Positions 121-7,368 of a DNA stretch of 64,000 bases are shown piece by piece. Under the pieces are notes generated by a model, which had not been told where the DNA came from, made no database searches, and was given only the letters and a program-made list of their open reading frames with translations. This DNA is from Deltaproteobacteria bacterium (lineage in GTDB: Bacteria; Myxococcota_A; Polyangia; Polyangiales; JADJMO01). Numbering within the stretch: position 1 is the first letter of the stretch; each line of letters opens with the position of its first letter. The translations under genes were made by a program, and so were the position numbers. The stretch is from assembly GCA_025363655.1 (NCBI GenBank), contig JANYDK010000083.1:1-64000 (forward strand), written 5' to 3'.

Positions 121-264
121 ACCTCTCGGAGAGCCCGAAAAAGTGGCCCGACGAAGACTTCTACGGGAGACGGGACATTGGGAAAGGATGTAATCCCCCG
201 CTGACATTCGGGCCTGAAATCTTGGGTGTTCGTCAGTTGGTCGAAATGGGCGACGGCGTTCGAG

Positions 265-340
265 ATTTCTCATTGCGCCAAAGATTGCTTCGCGACTTTC
301 GCCGCTTCGGTCAATCTCGCTCCGCTCGGTTGCCGAAGCT
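265..340. repeat. Dispersed double-hairpin palindromic element, copy A
   Basis: This intergenic element lies directly downstream of the TROVE gene stop (361). It has a weak first hairpin (AAAG near 280 pairing with CTTT near 296) and a strong second one (GCTTCGG at 304-310 pairing with CCGAAGC at 333-339) around a conserved core reading TCAATCTCGCTCCGCTCGG. The same order of hairpins and the same core occur at 6811-6882 and, inverted, at 33437-33555. It may also act as the 3' end structure of the TROVE transcript; no T-run follows. Confidence 0.75.
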
Positions 341-360: not shown

Positions 361-1965
361 TCACACCGCCATCTTCTCGATTTCGGAGATCCAGTGTCCC
401 TCGCCCAGCTCTCCGCGTGCGAACAGCGAGACGAGGTCGAAGACCACGTCCGAGAAGCCACCGATGTTGAGCACGTCTGCGTCGTCTTGCACTTGCGTCG
501 ACGAGTACGGCTGCAAATCGACGAGCACCAGCTTCGCGCCCGGGTTACGGAGCGAGAAGCGCTTCCACTCCTCTGCCATCGGGGTGCCCCCGCGGGGGTG
601 CCCCGACTTGGAGCGGCCGAAGTCGGACCAGGACTGGTTGTCCGAGACGTAGATGACGAGATCGCCGCTGGCTCCCTTCGCGTTCAAGTGACGGAGCGGC
701 GCGCTGCAGGCCGTGCCCCCCGAAGGAAGACTGGCGAGAAACGCGGCGTTGGTCATCACCGAATCGAAAGGGTTGATGCGACGAGGGAGCGGCACGACGT
801 CGTCGGAGAACGGCACGATCTCCGCCGACGGGTTACGCCGGAGGAAGGCCGCGCTGATCAACGCAGCGACGTCGAGGCAGCGCACGGAGCTGGTGGCTCC
901 CTTGCGGTTGCCGGTGACCGCCGATTGCATCGAGCCCGAGACGTCGGGGCAGAGGATGATCTTCTTCCCCGGCAACGACGGCACGTTCTCGATCGCGATC
1001 TCCATCGCCTCCTGCAGCGCGTGGGTCACCTCGGCGGGGATTCCCTCCGTCCCCGAGGCGGCCTTGTACGCGGCCATCAGCTGATAGGGAAAGACCCGCG
1101 CGCGCCGGATCAAGTCCGGGTTGCGCAGCCTCCCTGCGATCATCGACGCCATCGCCTCGCCGCGCTTTCCCGCGAAAACCCCGTGACGCGCGAGCGTATT
1201 GAGGTTCATGCGGGTCTGCGTCCAGCTCATGTTGTTGGCGATCGACTGCCACTTGTCGTCATCGAGCACGAGCGCGGTCAGCATCTCGAAGGGGACGTCC
1301 GGAAGGTCGCCCTCGCCCTTCTTGAAGGCCTCGAAGGCCTGCACGATCTTGGGGAGGTCGGTCTCCGTCACGTCCTTTCCGATCAGCCATCCGTACAGCG
1401 CCGCTCGGGCCGCGTCCTTGTTTCCCGCGGCGTCGGCCGGCTTCGGACGCACGAGCTTGATGACGTCCGAAAGCGATGGGTCATTGCCCAGCGACTGTCG
1501 GAAAATTGCTTCCGGCGATCGGCTTTGAAACCATCTTTGGCAAAGGCGCTTGGGCGCGGTGCCGAGCGACTTCCGGCCGACCACCCCGCTACGGATGATT
1601 TGCACGAAGTTGCGCAGCATCTTCCCGTTGTCGATGACCCGCGGGAAAACAGCCGGAAGGTGCACGCGACCGTGGGCGGCGAGATACGCGGTGAGGAACG
1701 CGGGCATGTCCTTCATGAAGCCGCGCTCACGCGTGTAGAGGGCCGTCTTGGCGACGAAGTCCGGGGAGACCGCGCTACAGAGCTGTAGCGTCTTCTCCAG
1801 TTGGTCCTTCGCTTGCGCGTAGAACGTGCCGTTGAACGTGCCGGTGACGGCGTACTGCGCGAGCGCCCCCTGCGGGGAGAACGCGTAGGCCTTGCCACCG
1901 GCCTCGTTGGTGTCGGAGGTGAAAGGCGCCTTGGGCGCCGAGGCGAAGAGGTGCTTGTTCGACAT
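361..1965 (-). CDS. rsr: TROVE/Ro60-like RNA-binding protein with vWA domain (Rsr type)
   Basis: A 534-residue protein with the layout of bacterial Ro60 orthologues. The N-terminal TROVE (HEAT-like ring) region spans roughly residues 20-310; it opens with the family pattern of a short leader, then 'FSPQGALAQYAVTGTF' and 'FVAKTALYTRERGFMKDMPAFL'-type helices. A C-terminal vWA domain follows, with a MIDAS DVSGSM at residues 341-346 and a later GGTA and VSDNQSW supplying the other metal ligands. Ro60 proteins bind misfolded ncRNA ends and Y RNAs, some of which carry tRNA-like modules; in bacteria they work with PNPase or next to RtcBA repair genes. No rtcB, rtcA or pnp is in this window. The gene is the last of a 7-kb all-minus block of 15 tRNA genes, 100 bp downstream of tRNA-Arg(CCG), with a hairpin between. 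The ATG at 1965 has an AAGGA motif at a long distance (about 12 nt). Confidence 0.9.
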   Translation of the reverse strand: MSNKHLFASAPKAPFTSDTNEAGGKAYAFSPQGALAQYAVTGTFNGTFYAQAKDQLEKTLQLCSAVSPDFVAKTALYTRERGFMKDMPAFLTAYLAAHGRVHLPAVFPRVIDNGKMLRNFVQIIRSGVVGRKSLGTAPKRLCQRWFQSRSPEAIFRQSLGNDPSLSDVIKLVRPKPADAAGNKDAARAALYGWLIGKDVTETDLPKIVQAFEAFKKGEGDLPDVPFEMLTALVLDDDKWQSIANNMSWTQTRMNLNTLARHGVFAGKRGEAMASMIAGRLRNPDLIRRARVFPYQLMAAYKAASGTEGIPAEVTHALQEAMEIAIENVPSLPGKKIILCPDVSGSMQSAVTGNRKGATSSVRCLDVAALISAAFLRRNPSAEIVPFSDDVVPLPRRINPFDSVMTNAAFLASLPSGGTACSAPLRHLNAKGASGDLVIYVSDNQSWSDFGRSKSGHPRGGTPMAEEWKRFSLRNPGAKLVLVDLQPYSSTQVQDDADVLNIGGFSDVVFDLVSLFARGELGEGHWISEIEKMAV

Positions 1966-2028
1966 GTTGGAATACGCGTCCTTTCTCGGCTTTGGGCGCC
2001 GTTCGGGTGATGGGTGGAAGGTGAGTCA

Positions 2029-2059
2029 GTCGACTCGATCTCGTGGGAGACGAGTCGAC
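2029..2059 (-). other. Perfect hairpin between tRNA-Arg(CCG) and the TROVE gene
   Basis: GTCGACTCG (2029-2037) pairs with CGAGTCGAC (2051-2059), and inside it TCTC pairs with GAGA around a 4-nt loop; only one A is bulged. No T-run follows on the minus strand, so it is not a classical terminator. It begins 6 nt after the tRNA CCA end and lies about 64 nt upstream of the TROVE ATG. It could be a processing or attenuation structure of a shared transcript, or part of a small RNA. Y RNA identity is possible but no Ro-binding consensus could be confirmed by eye. Confidence 0.6.
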
Positions 2060-2065
2060 GAGGAA

Positions 2066-2141
2066 TGGAGCCCTCGCTGGGAGTCGAACCCAGAACGTCG
2101 AGTGTCGGAAACTCGCGTCGATGGGACCGATCGTCGAGGGC
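2066..2141 (-). tRNA. tRNA-Arg (anticodon CCG), atypical D arm
   Basis: Acceptor GCCCTCG/CGAGGGC is perfect, with discriminator U and encoded CCA (2066-2068). Anticodon stem CGAGT/ACTCG holds loop TTCCGAC, and the T arm CTGGG-TTCGACT-CCCAG is regular. The D arm is poor: in the standard register GATC and CGAC pair at only two of four positions, with a compact loop. It is the tRNA closest to the TROVE gene. Confidence 0.85.
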
Positions 2142-2165
2142 AAGCGTGCACGGGAAGCGTGCGCG

Positions 2166-2241
2166 TGGACCCCCTGCGAGGAATCGAACCTCGACGGCCG
2201 GTTCCGTAGACCGGCGCTCGCGTATCCAGCGAGACAGGGGG
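2166..2241 (-). tRNA. tRNA-Arg (anticodon ACG)
   Basis: All arms fold: acceptor CCCCCTG/CAGGGGG, D stem CTCG/CGAG, anticodon stem CCGGT/ACCGG with loop CTACGGA, T arm CGAGG-TTCGATT-CCTCG. The discriminator is U and CCA is encoded (2166-2168). A34 would need TadA editing to inosine, as is usual for bacterial Arg(ACG). Confidence 0.93.
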
Positions 2242-2269
2242 AATGAGGATGGGGCGGGGAGCGAAGAGC

Positions 2270-2602
2270 TCAGGCCGGCGGGTTGAACTCGACGAACACC
2301 ATCTCCTCGGAAGGCGGTTCGTCGTCGTCGCAACATCCACCCGCACGGGTGACGAGGAGGCCGGCGCCGGGCCGACGGGTCATGTAGTCGTGACCCCACG
2401 CCTCATCGAGCGACAGGCTCCAGAGGTCGTGTCCGAGGGTGCGAAGCTCGTACATCGCCTCGGTGAAGGTCGTTCCCGAGTCGGAGCTCGCTCGGAGCCG
2501 CTCGGTGAGGATCAACGCTAGACGAAGACAGAGAGTCGCGCGGTCGCCTGCGGCGAGAAACGCTTCGAAGGAGAATTCCTTGCCGATCGGTGCGTGGCTC
2601 AT
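2270..2602 (-). CDS. Small protein of unknown function inside the tRNA array
   Basis: A 110-residue acidic, soluble protein that I do not recognise. The first half is helical and rich in leucine ('FLAAGDRATLCLRLALILTE'-type run); the last 20 residues contain a CCDDDE cluster and an acidic end. An AAAGGAAA Shine-Dalgarno lies 5-8 nt before the ATG at 2602, which supports translation. It sits between tRNA-Glu(CTC) and tRNA-Arg(ACG) on the same strand, with its stop 28 nt from the next tRNA 5' end, so it is probably on the same transcript as the tRNAs. No transmembrane segment or known catalytic motif is visible. Confidence 0.65.
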   Translation of the reverse strand: MSHAPIGKEFSFEAFLAAGDRATLCLRLALILTERLRASSDSGTTFTEAMYELRTLGHDLWSLSLDEAWGHDYMTRRPGAGLLVTRAGGCCDDDEPPSEEMVFVEFNPPA

Positions 2603-2639
2603 CGAGATTTCCTTTCGAGGGTACCGGAAAGTCGCGACA

Positions 2640-2717
2640 TGGTGTCCCCAGCGGGAATCGAACCCGCACCCCTCGATCGAGAATCGAGTGTCCTCGCCGT
2701 TAGAACTGATGGGGACG
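2640..2717 (-). tRNA. tRNA-Glu (anticodon CTC)
   Basis: Acceptor GTCCCCA/TGGGGAC, D stem GTTCT/AGGAC, anticodon stem CTCGA/TCGAG with loop TTCTCGA, T arm GCGGG-TTCGATT-CCCGC, discriminator A and encoded CCA (2640-2642). U33 is present. It lies 37 nt upstream of the small protein gene that ends at 2270. Confidence 0.93.
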
Positions 2718-3077
2718 AGAGAGAAAGGCGTTCGCCGTCGTCGTGGTGGACGGCGTCGAACGCTTCGTCAGCGAAGTAGGTCATCGGGTCATTGCCGAGC
2801 CGTCCCTCCCGAGCGCGGTCGCCTGCGCTCATTGGGAAAACTGCACGCCGAGGTCGCTATGCCGGTGCGCTGTCACGCGTTCTTTACTGGATGGCTGCTG
2901 CTAGGCCCACCTCCCGGCGTTCATCGCTTGCTCGGTGTCGGAGCTCACGTGCATGGCTCGGCCGCGCGGTCCCACCCCGCGAGGTTTCCCCAGCTGCACG
3001 AGAATCTCCCGCTCGGCCCTTTGGGTTGTAGACCCGATGGGCATCTGACGAATGTGCGGGGTGTCGACGACACCCGG
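2718..3077. other. 360-bp stretch without a recognised gene
   Basis: This lies between tRNA-Cys and tRNA-Glu(CTC). I find no convincing coding frame or further tRNA. A minus-strand GGG-TCTACAA-CCC loop near 3030 looks like an anticodon arm but has no matching acceptor or T arm. It may be decayed array DNA. Confidence 0.4.
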
Positions 3078-3147
3078 AGAGCAAGAGGAGAATCGAACTC
3101 CCGTGCGACGGTGTTGCAGACCGCGCCCCTCTCCAGAGGACTTGCTC
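3078..3147 (-). tRNA. tRNA-Cys (anticodon GCA), minimal D arm
   Basis: Acceptor GAGCAAG/CTTGCTC is perfect, with discriminator U; the next bases read CCG, so CCA is not fully encoded. Anticodon stem GCGGT/ACCGT (one wobble) holds loop CTGCAAC. T arm is GGGAG-TTCGATT-CTCCT. The D arm is very short, CCTC-TGGA-GAGG with a 4-nt loop, which makes this one of the smallest tRNAs in the array (70 nt to the discriminator). Its 5' end is 1 nt from the stop codon of the tautomerase gene upstream of it. Confidence 0.87.
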
Positions 3148-3148
3148 G

Positions 3149-3355
3149 TTACTCGGTTTTCCTCTTCAGGCGCGCCAGTTTCTTCGGCTCGCCGCCGACG
3201 CTCCAATGCTCGGGCAAGACCTCGCGGAGAATCACCCGAATGCTCTCGCGCGGCACTTCCAGCGTCTCTTCGGCGGCATCGGTGAGCGCGCGAATGAGCG
3301 CATGTTTACGGGCGGCGGTGCGTCCGGCGAGGAGAGAGACGTCGATGATCGGCAT
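3149..3355 (-). CDS. 4-oxalocrotonate tautomerase family protein
   Basis: A 68-residue protein with the classic family outline: catalytic Pro immediately after Met (MPIIDVSLLAGRT), conserved K/R helices, then 'PRESIRVILREV' and a 'HWSVGGE' end. Family members keto-enol tautomerise 2-hydroxymuconate-type dienols in meta-cleavage pathways; the N-terminal proline acts as the base after Met removal. The start is 9 nt downstream of the esterase stop (3365), so the two are probably translated from one mRNA. Its stop at 3149 lies 1 nt from the 5' end of tRNA-Cys, so the mRNA 3' end must be made by RNase P cleavage if they are co-transcribed. Native substrate unknown. Confidence 0.9.
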   Translation of the reverse strand: MPIIDVSLLAGRTAARKHALIRALTDAAEETLEVPRESIRVILREVLPEHWSVGGEPKKLARLKRKTE

Positions 3356-3364
3356 GGCTGAATC

Positions 3365-4162
3365 TCATTTCGGGAGGGTGACGCGGGCGAGGAACTCTTC
3401 GGCTTCGCGCAGCTCGTCGGGGGCGATGGAGTGGGCAAGGCCGGGATAGACGTGCTTTTCGACTTTCGCGCCCCAGGCCTCGAGCGCGCGCACGCTCGGC
3501 TCGACGACCGAGACGGGAATGACGGGGTCGCTGGTGCCGTGTGCGAGGAACACCGGTGTGGTCACCGAGCCCGGAATGACCGTCTGATCGTCGGCGATGC
3601 GTCCGGAGAACATCACCACCGCGGCCGGCGAGGGCGACCGATGCAAGGCGAGATAGCCACCGAGTATCGAGCCTTGGGAGAAGCCGACGACGACCAATCG
3701 TTCATGACCGAGCTTGCGCGCGTCGAGCTGCGCGTCGATCCATCGCGACACCTCGAGGCCGGCTTCGCGGACGCGCACTGCGCGATTGGCGTCGTCGAGG
3801 CCGACGGTGGAGAACCATTGCCGGCCGGTGGGAGCTTGATCGAAGCGATGAAACCCATCGGGCGTGAGAAAGGTGACGTTGGGCAGCGTCGTCGACATTC
3901 TTCGAGCGATGTCGTGGAAGGAGGCCGCGTCGGCGCCGACGCCGTGGAGCATGACCGCGAGATGGGTCGGCGGACCGCTGGTGGCCTCGAGGGTGAGGAT
4001 GTTCGGCGACGTGGGCATCGGCGTGGAACCGGTGCTGGAGGGAATGTCGGGCACGCTGCTCTTCTCCTGAGAATCCTGCGAAATGCGACGTGACGATGGA
4101 CAGCCGAGGAGCGATGCGAAGGCGACGAGCGTCGTCATGCCGTGCAAGCGCGCGTAGGTCAC
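3365..4162 (-). CDS. Secreted alpha/beta-hydrolase esterase (phospholipase/carboxylesterase family), lipoprotein
   Basis: A 265-residue protein. The N-terminus has a signal sequence ending in a lipobox-like ASLLGC near residue 20. The mature part has the carboxylesterase fold: oxyanion 'LHGVGADA', nucleophile elbow GFSQGS, acid region 'AHGTSDPVIP' and catalytic His in 'YPGLAHSI'. Family members hydrolyse short acyl esters or lysophospholipids. It is the upstream partner of the 4-OT gene (9-nt gap). It lies on the same strand as the tRNAs around it; tRNA-Gly(GCC) ends 23 nt upstream of its start. Substrate cannot be read from sequence. Confidence 0.85.
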   Translation of the reverse strand: MTYARLHGMTTLVAFASLLGCPSSRRISQDSQEKSSVPDIPSSTGSTPMPTSPNILTLEATSGPPTHLAVMLHGVGADAASFHDIARRMSTTLPNVTFLTPDGFHRFDQAPTGRQWFSTVGLDDANRAVRVREAGLEVSRWIDAQLDARKLGHERLVVVGFSQGSILGGYLALHRSPSPAAVVMFSGRIADDQTVIPGSVTTPVFLAHGTSDPVIPVSVVEPSVRALEAWGAKVEKHVYPGLAHSIAPDELREAEEFLARVTLPK

Positions 4163-4185
4163 GCGGCCTAGTCTAACGCGCCCTG

Positions 4186-4256
4186 AGCGATGAGCGGGGA
4201 TCGAACCCGCATCCCGAGAATGGCGTTCTCGGATCCTACCGTTGGACGATCATCGC
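4186..4256 (-). tRNA. tRNA-Gly (anticodon GCC) with C33
   Basis: Acceptor GCGATGA/TCATCGC, D stem GTCC/GGAT with loop AACGGTA, and T arm GCGGG-TTCGATC-CCCGC all fold well. The anticodon stem CGAGA/TCTCG encloses ACGCCAT, so position 33 is C rather than the near-universal U and 32/38 are A/U. No CCA is encoded (discriminator U, then CAG). Confidence 0.9.
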
Positions 4257-4314
4257 GATCCCCTGTGTCCTCCGACGCGCGCATCAGCAGTGCGGGCGAA
4301 AGTGGGCACGAAGG

Positions 4315-4390
4315 TGGAGCGGGCAGTCGGAATCGAACCGACATTCACTGGGTGGAAGCCAGGCGTCCTACCGAATTGGACGATGTCCGC
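4315..4390 (-). tRNA. tRNA-Gly (anticodon TCC)
   Basis: Acceptor GCGGACA/TGCCCGC has one A5-C68 mismatch. D stem GTCC/GGAC; anticodon arm CCTGG-CTTCCAC-CCAGT with position 27-43 unpaired; T arm GTCGG-TTCGATT-CCGAC. Discriminator U and CCA encoded (4315-4317). The two mismatches make it slightly degraded compared with a housekeeping tRNA. Confidence 0.88.
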
Positions 4391-4408
4391 GTGAGATGCA
4401 GTGACTAG

Positions 4409-4479
4409 AGGAACGACGGGGATTCGAACCCCGATCTCTCCCGTGCGGGGGGAGCGTCTTCCCGTTGGACGATCGTCCC
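4409..4479 (-). tRNA. tRNA-Ala (anticodon CGC) with C33
   Basis: Acceptor GGGACGA/TCGTTCC contains a G3-U70 wobble, the alanine identity element, which supports the call. Anticodon stem CTCCC/GGGAG holds CCCGCAC, so position 33 is C. T arm is CGGGG-TTCGAAT-CCCCG. The D stem has one mismatch. No CCA is encoded. Confidence 0.9.
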
Positions 4480-4687
4480 AAGTGGCGAGTCGCAAACTTC
4501 CGACGAGGGGCGTGGAGATCGCCGTCGCATTGCGCCGAGATGTTTCTCGAACGCCGCTCGACCCGCCTGCATCGCTTTCGTGATGCACGCAATCGCTGGA
4601 TCGCCTTCGAGCTCGCGCCCGTACGACGATGTTCGCTACCTTAGGACCGTTATAGTTACGTGTAATCCCCACTACATTCGGAAGCAG

Positions 4688-4759
4688 CGCTCCGTACGGG
4701 GATCGAACCCGTCTCACCCGGTAGACAGCCGGGCTGCGACACCAGTCGCATCACGAAGC
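4688..4759 (-). tRNA. tRNA-Asp (anticodon GTC), pyrimidine 37
   Basis: Acceptor GCTTCGT/ACGGAGC (one T-G wobble), discriminator G as expected for Asp. D stem TGCG/CGCA, T arm ACGGG-TTCGATC-CCCGT. The anticodon loop CTGTCTA has U at position 37, where a purine is almost always found. No CCA encoded. Confidence 0.9.
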
Positions 4760-4786
4760 ATCGGTATTTTCGTTTCGAACGAAGGA

Positions 4787-4861
4787 TGGTGTGACGTAGG
4801 GGAATCGAACCCCTCTCCGCCGGTTCACGGCCGGCCCTCGTGCCCAGACGAGTAACGCCAC
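4787..4861 (-). tRNA. tRNA-His (anticodon GTG), no encoded G-1, C33
   Basis: Acceptor GTGGCGT/ACGTCAC, D stem CTCG/CGAG, anticodon stem GCCGG/CCGGC with loop CCGTGAA (C at 33), T arm AGGGG-TTCGATT-CCCCT, CCA encoded (4787-4789). The base before G1 is C and the discriminator is A. Most bacterial tRNA-His genes encode G-1 opposite C73, the main HisRS identity pair; alphaproteobacteria are the known exception with no G-1 and A73. Confidence 0.9.
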
Positions 4862-4863
4862 GG

Positions 4864-4938
4864 TGGGTCGTCGAGGAATCGAACCTCGTTCTCCCGGGCT
4901 TCAGCCGGGCGCTGTGTCACCAGACTAGCTCACGACCC
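4864..4938 (-). tRNA. tRNA-Phe (anticodon GAA)
   Basis: Acceptor GGGTCGT/ACGACCC, discriminator A as expected for Phe, anticodon stem CCCGG/CCGGG with loop CTGAAGC, T arm CGAGG-TTCGATT-CCTCG. The D stem pairs at three positions (GCT/AGC). Only 2 nt separate its discriminator from the 5' end of tRNA-His, so there is no room for an encoded CCA (CCG follows) or a separate promoter. Confidence 0.9.
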
Positions 4939-4965
4939 AATTGCACATTTCTGCAGACGATAGGG

Positions 4966-5040
4966 TGCCCCCGACGGGATTCGAACCCGCAATACCCCGA
5001 TCGAAAGTCGGGTGTCCTGAAGCCGTTAGACGACGGGGGC
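4966..5040 (-). tRNA. tRNA-Glu (anticodon TTC)
   Basis: Acceptor GCCCCCG/CGGGGGC, anticodon stem CCCGA/TCGGG with loop CTTTCGA, T arm GCGGG-TTCGAAT-CCCGT. D-arm sequence (GTCT...AGGAC) is the usual bacterial tRNA-Glu form. Discriminator A; CCC follows instead of CCA. Confidence 0.93.
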
Positions 5041-5056
5041 GATATGCACACATGAG

Positions 5057-5128
5057 AGCCCTCGCCCGGAATTGCACCGAGTTCTCCCGGGTACGGGCCG
5101 GGCGCTCCACTGTTCGAGCTGCAAGGGC
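5057..5128 (-). tRNA. tRNA-Thr (anticodon CGT), altered elbow and C33
   Basis: Acceptor GCCCTTG/CGAGGGC (one wobble), D stem GCTC/GAGC, anticodon stem CCCGG/CCGGG with loop CCCGTAC (C33). The T loop reads TGCAATT instead of TTCGAAT, giving G at 55, and the D loop GAACAGTG lacks the G18-G19 pair; these are the residues that normally interlock at the tRNA elbow. Discriminator U, no CCA. It may be a degenerate or specialised tRNA. Its 5' end is 5 nt from the acyl-CoA ligase stop. Confidence 0.78.
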
Positions 5129-5133
5129 GAAAG

Positions 5134-6684
5134 TCAGGGACGCGCGCGGAGGAGAAACCGTTGGATCTTCCCGGTCGCGGTCTTGGGGAGCTCGTCGAGG
5201 AAGGTGATGAAGCGCGGACACTTGTAGGGCGCGAGGCGCTCCTTGGCGTGGGCGCGGAGACTCTCGACGAGCGCGGGAGAGCTTGAAATTCCAGCGCGGA
5301 GTGTGATGAAGGCGTGGGCCTTGGTGAGGCCGTCGTCGTCCTCGGCGCCGACGACCGCGCACTCGAGGACGCTCGGATGAGCGAGAAGCGCGCCCTCGAC
5401 CTCGACCGGAGAGACCCAGATGCCGCCGGTCTTGAGCATGTCGTCGCTCCGGCCGCCGTGGAAGAAGAAGCCGTCTTCGTCTTCGAGGTATTTGTCGCCG
5501 GTGCGAATCCACTCGCCGCGGAGCGCGTGCTTGGTGGCCTCGTGCTTGTTCCAATACATCGCCATCGTCGAGTCGCCGCGGACGAGGAGGTCGCCGAGCT
5601 CGCCGCGCGGGACGTCGCCGCCGGTCTCGTCGACGAGTCGCAGGTCGTAGCCGGGTACGGGTTTTCCCGTGGATCCAGGGCGAATTGCGTCGGGTCGGGA
5701 GGAGAGAAAGATGTGACAGATTTCGGTGGAGCCGATGCCGTCGAGGATGGTGAGCCCAGTGCGTTCGCGCCAGCGCTCGAAGATCGCCGCGGGCAAAGCC
5801 TCACCGGCGCTGGCGCAGGCGCGCACGGAGGAGAAGTCCGCTTCCATGCCTTGGTCGATGGCCGCGAGCATGTTGGCGTAGGCAGTTGGTACGCCGAAAA
5901 AGAGCGTCGGCCGGTGACGTTTGACCTCGGCGAACACCGCCTCTGGGGTCGGGCGCCCCTCGTAGAGGACGGCCGAGGCGCCGACGTGCAACGGGAAGTA
6001 CTGCGCGTTGCCGAGGCCGTAGGCGAAGAAGAGCTTGGCGATGGAGAAGCAGCGATCGGTCTCGGTGATCTGGAGAATCGAGCGGCCATAGGTCTCGCAG
6101 CAGATCCACATGTCGTGCTGGAGGTGGACGACGCCCTTCGGCTCGCCCGTGGTGCCGCTCGAATAGAGGAGGAAGGCGAAGCCGTCGCGGTGGGTCGCCG
6201 CGTAGGCCTCGATCGGCGTTGCGGCTTCGAGCGCTGCGATTGCTTCGGCGATGTTGAAGGTCACCGCTCCTTCGGCGACCAGGGCTTTTGCCTGGGAGGC
6301 GTCGACGATGGTCTCGTCGAACACGACGAGCCGGGCGTCGGAGTCGCGAAAGATGGTGCGATGGTCGTGCTCCTTGAGGAGCGTGTTGATGGGCACGGCG
6401 ACGGCGCCGAGGGCGATGGCGCCCCAGAAGCCGATCGAGAGAAGAGGAGAGTCGCGGAGGACGAGCGCCACGCGATCGCCGCGATGAACGCCGGCCGCAC
6501 GGAGCGCGCCTGCGAACTTCCGCACTGCGCGATCGAGCTCGTCGTAGGTCATCGTCGCGTCGGCTGCTTTGCCCAGCTCGCTCGAAACGATGGCGACCCG
6601 TGAGCCCCGTCCTTCGCGAAGATGCCTTCCGACGAAGTGCTCGGCGGCGTTGAAGACCTCGGGCAAATGTTCACTCGCGCGCAT
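5134..6684 (-). CDS. Benzoate-CoA ligase family acyl-CoA synthetase
   Basis: A 516-residue ANL-superfamily enzyme that would activate an aromatic or related acid to its CoA thioester via an acyl-AMP. Visible motifs are the P-loop YSSGTTGEPKG (A3), GIGSTEICHIFLS (A5), 'RTGDKY' (A7), 'GRSDDMLKTGGIWVSP' (A8) and 'PKTATGKIQR' with the A10 lysine near the C-terminus. The GSTEICHIFLSSRP and PVPGYDLRLVDE segments are typical of the benzoate-CoA ligase branch. Length is normal for that branch (about 510-530). It lies between tRNA-Asn (28 nt gap before the mature start) and tRNA-Thr (5 nt after its stop). The 4-OT and esterase in the same block hint at aromatic degradation, but no ring-opening genes are present. 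Confidence 0.9.
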   Translation of the reverse strand: MRASEHLPEVFNAAEHFVGRHLREGRGSRVAIVSSELGKAADATMTYDELDRAVRKFAGALRAAGVHRGDRVALVLRDSPLLSIGFWGAIALGAVAVPINTLLKEHDHRTIFRDSDARLVVFDETIVDASQAKALVAEGAVTFNIAEAIAALEAATPIEAYAATHRDGFAFLLYSSGTTGEPKGVVHLQHDMWICCETYGRSILQITETDRCFSIAKLFFAYGLGNAQYFPLHVGASAVLYEGRPTPEAVFAEVKRHRPTLFFGVPTAYANMLAAIDQGMEADFSSVRACASAGEALPAAIFERWRERTGLTILDGIGSTEICHIFLSSRPDAIRPGSTGKPVPGYDLRLVDETGGDVPRGELGDLLVRGDSTMAMYWNKHEATKHALRGEWIRTGDKYLEDEDGFFFHGGRSDDMLKTGGIWVSPVEVEGALLAHPSVLECAVVGAEDDDGLTKAHAFITLRAGISSSPALVESLRAHAKERLAPYKCPRFITFLDELPKTATGKIQRFLLRARP

Positions 6685-6715
6685 CGGCCCATGGAATCAC
6701 AGGAGTCGCGCGTTG

Positions 6716-6788
6716 CTCCAGCGGATGGATTCGAACCATCGCGGACGCCGGTTAACAGCCGGCCGCTCTGCCTCTGAGCTACGCTGGA
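6716..6788 (-). tRNA. tRNA-Asn (anticodon GTT)
   Basis: A fully canonical tRNA: acceptor TCCAGCG/CGCTGGA, regular D arm with GCTC/GAGC, anticodon stem GCCGG/CCGGC with loop CTGTTAA, T arm GATGG-TTCGAAT-CCATC, discriminator G as expected for Asn. CCA is not encoded. Confidence 0.96.
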
Positions 6789-6810
6789 AAGAACTGGAAA
6801 AAGTCGACAT

Positions 6811-6882
6811 TCTCGTGTCGCCAAAGATTGCTGCGCAACTTTGGCCGTTTCGGTCAATCTCGCTGCGCTCGGTTGCCGAAAC
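6811..6882. repeat. Dispersed double-hairpin palindromic element, copy B
   Basis: Hairpin 1 is CCAAAG (6821-6826) with CTTTGG (6839-6844), strengthened by TTGC/GCAA inside. Hairpin 2 is TTTCGG (6848-6853) with CCGAAA (6876-6881), enclosing the conserved core TCAATCTCGCTGCGCTCGG. The left edge carries TCTCGTGTCG, matching the TCTCGTTTCG seen at the third locus. The element occupies part of the 386-bp gap between tRNA-Asn and tRNA-Lys(CTT), the rest of which (6883-7174) shows no convincing gene. Confidence 0.8.
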
Positions 6883-7174
6883 TGAAACGGGTGCCGGCGA
6901 GAGCGCGAACGAACGCGCCCCGCACGAGGATGCGAAGGACGACTCGGGTGAGCGCGGCCACCGGACGCGAAAATCGCGTCGCGAGGGCGAGCTCTCCCTT
7001 GAGCCGAAGCTGAGGAGAGCGCGCGCCCATGCAGGAACCCCTGCAGGTCGAGTCGTCCATCGAGTCGCCGCGCGAAGGACGAAATCGTCCCTCGCCGGCA
7101 CCCTATGGATGCCAGGTTGTCAAACATCAGTGCCCTCGTGAACGAGAGCGAGCGTCGCGGCACGGAGTGCCGAG

Positions 7175-7248
7175 TGGGTCCAGAGGGAGTCGAACCCTCA
7201 CGATTCCCGGGTAAGAGCCGGGTGCGCTACCAGTTGCGCGATGGACCC
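7175..7248 (-). tRNA. tRNA-Lys (anticodon CTT)
   Basis: Acceptor GGGTCCA/TGGACCC, D arm GCGC/GCGC-type with GG in the loop, anticodon stem CCCGG/CCGGG with loop CTCTTAC, T arm GAGGG-TTCGACT-CCCTC, discriminator A. No CCA is encoded (CTC follows). Confidence 0.95.
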
Positions 7249-7295
7249 CTGCCGCGAAGAGCGCGCACGAATGCGAGCTCGCGGGCGGTGGCGAG

Positions 7296-7368
7296 TGGGG
7301 CGCGAGGGACTCGAACCCTCACGATGTCGGGTTAAAAGCCCGCTGCTCTACCATTGAGCGAGCGCCCC
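7296..7368 (-). tRNA. tRNA-Lys (anticodon TTT), first tRNA of the array
   Basis: Acceptor GGGGCGC/GCGCCCC, regular D arm (GCTC...GAGC), anticodon loop CTTTTAA on a stem with 27-43 unpaired, T arm GAGGG-TTCGAGT-CCCTC, discriminator A, no CCA. It is the most upstream tRNA of the minus-strand block; no clear promoter could be read in the 100 bp above it. Confidence 0.95.

What the first reader, a model, noticed from the sequence alone, without database searches (positions are those of the whole stretch)
361..7368. TROVE/Ro60-like gene at the end of a 15-tRNA array on one strand
All tRNA genes and protein genes from 7368 to 361 point the same way, ending with a Ro60-like RNA-binding protein 100 bp after the last tRNA. 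Ro60 proteins bind misfolded RNAs and tRNA-like Y RNAs; bacterial rsr genes usually neighbour RNA-repair genes, but here the neighbours are tRNAs, several of them abnormal. A working idea is that Ro60 chaperones, stores or checks these tRNAs, for example under tRNA-cleaving attack. tRNA arrays are known in other bacteria and phages; I know of none tied to rsr. The functional link is inference.
Basis: partly seen in the sequence, partly recalled or inferred. Interest (0 to 1): 0.85.

Follow-up and report, generated by a model that had tools for sequence, protein, structure and literature searches.

The report
Ro60 with ribosome-mimicking Y RNAs
A bacterial relative of the human Ro60 protein sits in a cluster of spare tRNA genes together with its partner Y RNAs, two of which carry copies of working parts of the ribosome's 23S RNA, suggesting an RNA-protein particle that poses as the translation machinery.

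Summary
In detail: 15 tRNA or tRNA-like genes (13 by ARAGORN, 2 more by Rfam) and five ORFs run in one direction from 7368 to a Ro60-family gene (361-1965) that starts 100 bp after the last tRNA. The link is real and wide: 51 of 160 fetched homologous Ro60 loci, in several bacterial phyla and in virus-classified contigs, carry at least 4 tRNAs (783 on the Ro60 strand, 9 opposite). Myxococcus phage Mx1 has it too. It is not wholly new: a TROVE gene in 20 of 29 archaeal tRNA clusters was reported in 2019. Nor is it obligate: two relatives have such arrays without Ro60, and many homologues lack tRNAs.

The window has one behind Ro60 (145-214) and two long ones inside the array. One (4497-4684) encloses a mimic of 23S rRNA helices 69-71, with 29 of 29 bases identical to 23S rRNA. 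The other (2766-3050) encloses the 23S GTPase-associated centre. The helix-69 class recurs in 13 loci with strong covariation. Most other Y RNAs carry a tRNA-like module.

Best reading: a Ro60-Y particle whose Y RNAs are baits or tethers that imitate tRNA and ribosome parts. The anatomy is shown by computation; the function is inference.

The parts
361..1965 (-). Ro60-family protein, 534 aa (TROVE ring plus vWA domain with DVSGSM MIDAS motif)
   Evidence: vWA_Ro60 6.9e-15, TROVE 22.9 bits; PDB 2nvo by sequence 1.2e-17; AF2 model, top 11 PDB matches all Ro60/Rsr/TROVE
145..214 (-). Short Y RNA directly behind Ro60 (GGCC-CGAATG..GGGGGATTACA..GTCTCCCG..TCG-GGCC)
   Evidence: Y-stem search, 8/8 core pairs; ends read from the sequence; Rfam YrlB only 21.5 bits, below its cut-off
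4497..4684 (-). Long Y RNA enclosing a mimic of 23S rRNA helix 69 to helix 71 (29 of 29 bases identical, 4632-4660)
   Evidence: covariation over 11 relatives
2766..3050 (-). Long Y-like RNA enclosing a mimic of the 23S GTPase-associated centre (H42-44; core 2865-2918)
   Evidence: blastn 81% to 23S; nhmmer 7.7e-17 (model includes this sequence); closing stem CATCGGGTC/GACCCGATG and CGTCAG/CTGACG read in the sequence
7295..7368 (-). tRNA-Lys(TTT)
7174..7248 (-). tRNA-Lys(CTT)
6715..6788 (-). tRNA-Asn(GTT)
5057..5128 (-). tRNA missed by ARAGORN
   Evidence: Rfam tRNA 37.9 bits
4964..5040 (-). tRNA-Glu(TTC)
4862..4938 (-). tRNA-Phe(GAA)
4787..4861 (-). tRNA-His(GTG)
4688..4760 (-). Degenerate tRNA, anticodon loop reads CTGTCTA (Asp-like), missed by ARAGORN
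   Evidence: 38.5 bits to the tRNA-Sec model; matches elements in other arrays
4408..4479 (-). tRNA-Ala(CGC), keeps the G3:U70 identity pair
4315..4390 (-). tRNA-Gly(TCC)
4185..4256 (-). tRNA-Gly(GCC), C33 instead of U33
3076..3147 (-). tRNA-Cys(GCA)
2640..2716 (-). tRNA-Glu(CTC)
2166..2241 (-). tRNA-Arg(ACG)
2066..2141 (-). tRNA-Arg(CCG)
5134..6684 (-). Passenger: benzoate-CoA-ligase-family protein; no relative in other arrays
   Evidence: TIGR02262 9.4e-177; absent from the other array loci
3149..4162 (-). Passengers: carboxylesterase (3365-4162) and tautomerase (3149-3355); no relatives in other arrays
2270..2602 (-). Passenger: 110-aa ORF without known family

Best explanation
This is a Ro60-Y RNA particle module lodged in a mobile, phage-type array of supernumerary tRNAs. 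Shown by computation: the Ro60-family protein, same-strand Y RNAs with the conserved Ro60-binding stem, and effector modules that mimic tRNA (a permuted T-arm/D-arm module, as in YrlA) or two working parts of 23S rRNA (helices 69-71, and the GTPase-associated centre). Inferred: each Y RNA is held on the Ro60 ring by its stem, while the module presents a copy of a tRNA or of the factor- and tRNA-contacting face of the 50S subunit. It would work as bait: it attracts proteins or small molecules that recognise those RNAs and either soaks them up or brings them, or their damaged targets, to Ro60. Candidates are tRNA- and rRNA-attacking nucleases or modifying toxins, translation factors, and thiopeptide-like drugs at the GTPase centre. 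Ro60 could then pass damaged RNA to a nuclease such as PNPase. The array tRNAs are a separate cargo that can also occur without Ro60 and may replace lost tRNAs.
For: Ro60 fold. 275 Y stems on the Ro60 strand in 117 of 180 loci, none on the other strand and none in shuffled sequence. The outer four pairs, not required by that search, pair in 95/95/92/78% of 260 unique Y RNAs against 49/59/44/50% when shuffled. Rfam YrlA above its cut-off inside array L047 (70.1 bits, cut-off 69). 170 of 275 carry a tRNA T-arm. Helix-69 Y RNAs in 13 loci; 11 aligned: 21 of 33 pairs with double changes, covariation 0.528 against 0.198 shuffled, 0/500. GTPase-centre RNA in window, G240 and G171, with A1054-U1105 changed to G-C on both sides in two of them. 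The two array loci without Ro60 have no Y RNA. Array tRNA-Ala keep G3:U70 in 34 of 40. A published suggestion that the tRNA-like part of YrlA competes with an anticodon nuclease (PMC7790460).
Against: No binding, expression or phenotype data. Most Ro60 loci lack rRNA-mimic Y RNAs; the strict helix-69 pattern is in only 4 of 290 class genomes, rising to 6 with the two variants known from the arrays. The helix-69 terminal loop, the best-known drug and modification target there, is lost in several members, so the conserved ligand must be the H69/H70/H71 junction. The GTPase-centre class rests on three genomes of one family plus an odd viral case. Two genomes keep the helix-69 Y RNA away from Ro60 and tRNAs, and two viral contig fragments with it show no Ro60.
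Confidence: 0.5

Rival explanations
1. One reading: Ro60 chaperones, stores or checks the array tRNAs themselves.
For: Recurrent co-location on one strand; array tRNAs are divergent and some lack U33, so misfolding is plausible; Ro60 is known to bind misfolded RNAs (established knowledge; PDB titles).
Against: Arrays with the HNH gene but without Ro60 persist in two relatives; many Ro60 of the clade have no tRNAs but do have Y RNAs; Y RNAs, not tRNAs, follow Ro60.
Confidence: 0.2
2. Tether for ribosome and tRNA turnover: the Y modules recruit ribosome-binding or tRNA enzymes to Ro60 so that damaged 23S rRNA and tRNA are degraded or matured. This resembles the Deinococcus Rsr-Y RNA-PNPase machine, with no decoy role.
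For: Deinococcus Rsr is tethered to PNPase by Y RNA (stated in PMC7790460). The mimics copy factor- and tRNA-contacting 23S sites (established ribosome structure) and keep covarying folds.
Against: Among the array genes compared, no nuclease or repair gene was found to recur apart from the HNH gene; the window neighbours are unrelated passengers.
Confidence: 0.3
3. Hitchhiking: tRNA array, HNH gene, Ro60 and Y RNAs travel together in phages and integrated elements, and their proximity says nothing of joint function.
For: Mx1 phage and many virus-classified contigs carry the same assembly; HNH genes are linked to arrays (19 of 51 loci with tRNAs against 2 of 109 without); the pieces can separate.
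Against: The assembly recurs in several phyla and keeps Y RNA structure by compensatory change; tRNA-module Y RNAs and rRNA-module Y RNAs share one theme.
Confidence: 0.3
4. DNA-level role: tRNA genes and the I-CeuI-like 23S site are targets or attachment sites for integrases and homing endonucleases, and are kept as DNA bait.
For: The 27-bp I-CeuI site is present exactly; an HNH endonuclease gene is common in arrays.
Against: Stems change in compensated pairs, which only RNA needs; the part best kept in all members is short and the helix-69 loop is lost in some; G248 and G231 arrays have the HNH gene but no helix-69 element.
Confidence: 0.05

Closest known systems
Rsr-Y RNA systems (Deinococcus; Salmonella rsr-yrlBA-rtcBA)
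   Same: Ro60-fold protein with a Y RNA encoded next to it; Y RNAs with a Ro60-binding stem and a tRNA-like module
   Different: No rtcBA neighbours; embedded in a tRNA array; extra Y RNAs with 23S rRNA modules; protein far below the Rsr equivalog cut-off (78 of 900 bits)
YrlA, bacterial tRNA-mimicking Y RNA (Rfam RF02553)
   Same: Y stem plus permuted tRNA module; one array member passes Rfam's cut-off (L047)
   Different: The window's own Y RNAs do not match YrlA; two of them carry rRNA pieces, for which Rfam shows no family
tRNA gene clusters with TROVE genes in archaea (Morgado and Vicente 2019, PMC6333295)
   Same: TROVE gene within dense tRNA arrays, pseudogene-like tRNAs, mobile-element genes nearby
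   Different: Archaea; the term Y RNA does not occur in that paper; here bacteria and phage, with Y RNAs
tRNA arrays of jumbo phages (e.g. RsoM2USA with 44 tRNAs and a TROVE gene, PMC8504454; Mx1)
   Same: Many tRNAs plus a Ro60-family gene; in Mx1 they lie on one strand and Ro60 is 47% identical over its full length
   Different: The window is chromosomal with metabolic passenger genes; I saw no link proposed between TROVE and tRNAs in the passages read of the RsoM2USA paper

Membership tests
Ro60/TROVE family | HEAT-repeat ring plus vWA domain | tested here: met
   AF2 model; top 11 PDB matches are Ro60, Rsr or TROVE, E 4e-18 to 1.7e-14; vWA_Ro60 6.9e-15
Ro60/TROVE family | Pfam TROVE gathering score (23 bits) | tested here: inconclusive
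   22.9 bits, matching only part of the profile
Rsr equivalog (NF041674) | Curated cut-off 900 bits | tested here: not met
   78.1 bits: a distinct clade, not the standard Rsr
Y RNA | Paired Ro60-binding stem with conserved CGAAUG..ACUACA and YUUGUCG strands | tested here: met
   275 against 0 in controls; outer pairing well above shuffles. The motif as defining feature is partly from memory of YrlA
Y RNA | Encoded next to a Ro60 gene | tested here: met
   Window 145-214 behind Ro60; 72 of 81 genome loci and 29 of 80 viral loci have one; exceptions G159, G185
Y RNA | Physical binding to Ro60 | not testable with these tools
   Needs CLIP or a gel-shift assay
YrlA (RF02553) | Rfam gathering score 69 | tested here: not met
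   No YrlA hit in the window; met by L047 (70.1 bits)
tRNA array | Many closely spaced tRNA genes beyond the housekeeping set | tested here: met
   15 in 5.3 kb; housekeeping copies with the same anticodons elsewhere in the genome for most
23S rRNA mimic (not a degenerate rRNA gene) | Short functional rRNA piece in non-rRNA flanks with structure kept by compensation | tested here: met
   Helix-69 class; GTPase-centre class has only three close members

The most novel reading that the evidence does not exclude
A new class of Y RNA uses Ro60 as a handle for copies of ribosomal RNA working centres (H69-H71 and the GTPase-associated centre) beside tRNA copies, forming a sponge or bait that protects translation against ribotoxins, tRNases, antibiotics or phage takeover in bacteria, and is used by phages too.
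Probability: 0.35. Interest if true: 0.92.

Novelty: new variant of a known kind. Interest (0 to 1): 0.78.

Why it matters
Bacterial Y RNAs are known to imitate tRNA, but what their effector modules do is open. Y RNAs that imitate two 23S rRNA sites, in some of the same arrays as tRNA mimics, suggest a common rule: the module copies whatever RNA the particle must attract partners of. It gives a testable handle on Ro60 function in bacteria and phages, with Myxococcus phage Mx1 as an isolated carrier of the array, Ro60 and a tRNA-module Y RNA. It also offers a possible reason why Ro60 genes sit in tRNA arrays in archaea, bacteria and phages.

Tried and rejected
A repeated element at 306-333 and 6849-6876 looked like a candidate array RNA but is a dispersed genome-wide repeat with about 100 copies. 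The first Y-stem search, with rigid spacing, missed most members and was replaced. GTPase-centre regex hits in L241-L243 lie inside the Ro60 coding sequence and were dropped. RNA folding of a '-TACACGCAA-' repeat in the G191-type arrays gave no structure beyond chance. Searches for 16S and other rRNA sites (sarcin-ricin loop, decoding site, 530 loop) in arrays found no convincing case. Rfam at relaxed threshold named none of the long Y RNAs. Window passenger genes were tested as part of the system and rejected. A MazF-type target was considered for helix 69/70 and set aside, because the UUCCU cut site known to me is absent. H69-loop ligands such as viomycin, TlyA or RluD are unlikely, because the loop is lost in several members. 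The key bacterial Y RNA paper that I know (Chen et al. 2014, RNA) is not in the library, so novelty against it rests on memory.
Full report
Setting. The window is the first 64 kb of a 222.7-kb contig of a 9.0-Mb draft genome. Its closest named Ro60 homologues are in Labilithrix and other Polyangia (Myxococcota).

Observation. ARAGORN finds 13 tRNAs on the minus strand between 7368 and 2066. The ORFs between them and the terminal gene share the strand. The terminal gene is a Ro60-family protein: vWA_Ro60 6.9e-15, TROVE 22.9 bits (cut-off 23), Rsr equivalog 78 of 900 bits. Its AlphaFold2 model has only Ro60, Rsr and TROVE structures among its first 11 PDB matches. It is a Ro60-family member of a separate clade.

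Recurrence. In 290 genomes of the class, 76 have some homologue, and about three dozen have the close clade. Wide regions show conserved arrays of up to 35 tRNAs with Ro60 inside and a recurring order (Lys-Lys-Gln-Asn-Thr...) in four families of the order. Scans fetched 80 genome loci and 80 virus-classified loci. Of these, 51 hold at least four tRNAs (16 genome, 35 viral), 783 on the Ro60 strand and 9 opposite. Myxococcus phage Mx1 has 37 tRNAs on one strand around a 47%-identical Ro60. A TROVE gene in 20 of 29 archaeal tRNA clusters was reported in 2019 (PMC6333295).

Independence. Two Ro60-negative relatives have elevated tRNA counts. Their arrays, 30 tRNAs in G228 and 17 in G115, carry the HNH gene found in most Polyangia arrays but no Ro60 and no Y RNA. 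Conversely, most Ro60 loci of the clade have few or no tRNAs. The metabolic genes between the window's tRNAs have no counterpart in other arrays.

Array tRNAs. They are extra: housekeeping copies with the same anticodons lie elsewhere in the genome for most of them. Mean RF00005 counts are about 59 in Ro60-positive genomes of the order and about 46 in Ro60-negative ones (my average). They are divergent but fold. U33 is kept in 86-92% in the large Ro60-array sets, 77% in the window and 100% in Mx1 and in housekeeping tRNAs. Array tRNA-Ala keep the G3:U70 identity pair in 34 of 40. This mix fits charged or chargeable tRNAs under relaxed constraint and does not by itself point to decoys.

Y RNAs. 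A motif CGAATG..GGACTACA, paired with GTCTC..CTTGTCG, recurs near Ro60. It matches the Ro60-binding stem of bacterial Y RNAs as I know it. A search with the 8-bp core gave 275 hits on the Ro60 strand in 117 of 180 loci, none on the other strand and none in shuffled sequence. The four outer pairs, not used to select hits, pair in 95, 95, 92 and 78% of 260 unique RNAs against 49, 59, 44 and 50% when partners are shuffled. 170 of the 275 contain a T-arm, in examples read followed by a D-arm as in the permuted tRNA module of YrlA, and one array member passes the Rfam YrlA cut-off. The window's own short Y RNA is at 145-214, behind Ro60.

Ribosomal modules. The window has an exact I-CeuI/helix-69 sequence at 4632-4658, the only copy found in the draft genome, so its own 23S gene appears to be missing from the assembly. 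Blast against rRNA operons of relatives gives 29 of 29 bases for it, and 81% over 54 bases of the GTPase-associated centre at 2865-2918. Both lie inside long RNAs closed by a Y stem. The helix-69 one spans 4497-4684, with 8 of 8 core and 4 of 4 outer pairs. The GTPase-centre one spans 2766-3050, closed by CATCGGGTC/GACCCGATG and CGTCAG/CTGACG. Helix-69 Y RNAs occur in 13 loci: window, G171, G191, G269, G159, G185, a Labilithrix MAG, an Undibacterium genome and five viral contigs. On 11 aligned members, 21 of 33 pairs show double compensatory changes. The covariation score is 0.528 against 0.198 (sd 0.021) in shuffles, 0 of 500 as high, and 0.08-0.16 for slid partners. The parts kept in nearly all are GGUCCUAAGGUAG, a following hairpin where 23S has helix 71, and a strand like 23S ACGAAUGGC. 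The helix-69 loop itself is lost in some. In the strict genome search the four positive genomes all carry the close Ro60 clade, but in G159 and G185 the RNA is not beside Ro60. The GTPase-centre RNA is in window, G240 and G171. In window and G240 the A1054-U1105 pair has become G-C on both sides, and A1067 is kept in all three (E. coli numbering from my own knowledge). A viral contig, L244, has a split version.

Mechanism. Shown by computation: the protein fold, Y stems, modules and structure conservation. Inferred: binding, and a bait or tether role. The sites copied are those where 23S meets tRNA and translation factors (established ribosome knowledge), beside tRNA copies, so partners of the translation machinery, or agents that attack it, are the natural targets. 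A published suggestion is that the tRNA-like part of YrlA competes with an anticodon nuclease (PMC7790460). The same paper states that Deinococcus Y RNA tethers Rsr to PNPase. I weigh bait or sponge and turnover tether as close rivals.

Novelty. Ro60 beside tRNA arrays and tRNA-like Y RNAs are known. I found no report of Y RNAs with rRNA modules in the library searched, but that library lacks most subscription papers. I file it as a new variant of a known kind.

Noticed in passing
L032:12150-12760, L041:7100-7720, L036:6900-7500, L047 (reverse strand): A roughly 190-aa HNH endonuclease gene is conserved in most Polyangia arrays, in the two Ro60-less arrays and in phage Mx1, but is absent from the window's shorter array.
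   Followed up: partly
L047 and L046 (G269, G174); examples L046:1260-1365 and 1730-1830: A roughly 85-nt non-tRNA RNA element with two strong hairpins occurs in at least seven copies across the two arrays (fold z about -3.4); identity unknown.
   Followed up: partly
window 306-333 and 6849-6876: Copies of a dispersed repeat (GCAACCGAGCGnAGCGAGATTGACCGAA) with about 100 copies in the genome.
   Followed up: yes
L318:314-341 (IMG/VR contig, 50 kb): A GTPase-associated-centre-like RNA with compensated closing stem in a virus-classified contig that shows no Ro60.
   Followed up: partly
L244:10322-10742 (viral contig): GTPase-centre-like halves separated by about 360 nt, downstream of a Y RNA.
   Followed up: no
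array tRNAs in many loci: A base other than U at position 33 is concentrated in tRNA-Gly(GCC) (17 of 29) and tRNA-Val(GAC) (10 of 15); housekeeping tRNAs have none.
   Followed up: partly
L033 (G248): G248 has a second Ro60 copy with only two tRNAs nearby, besides the full array.
   Followed up: no
several Y RNA 5' strands, e.g. L153:1447 and L188:11941: The Y 5' strand CGAATGCCGGTGA matches 13-14 bases of 23S rRNA near E. coli position 980; may be chance.
   Followed up: no
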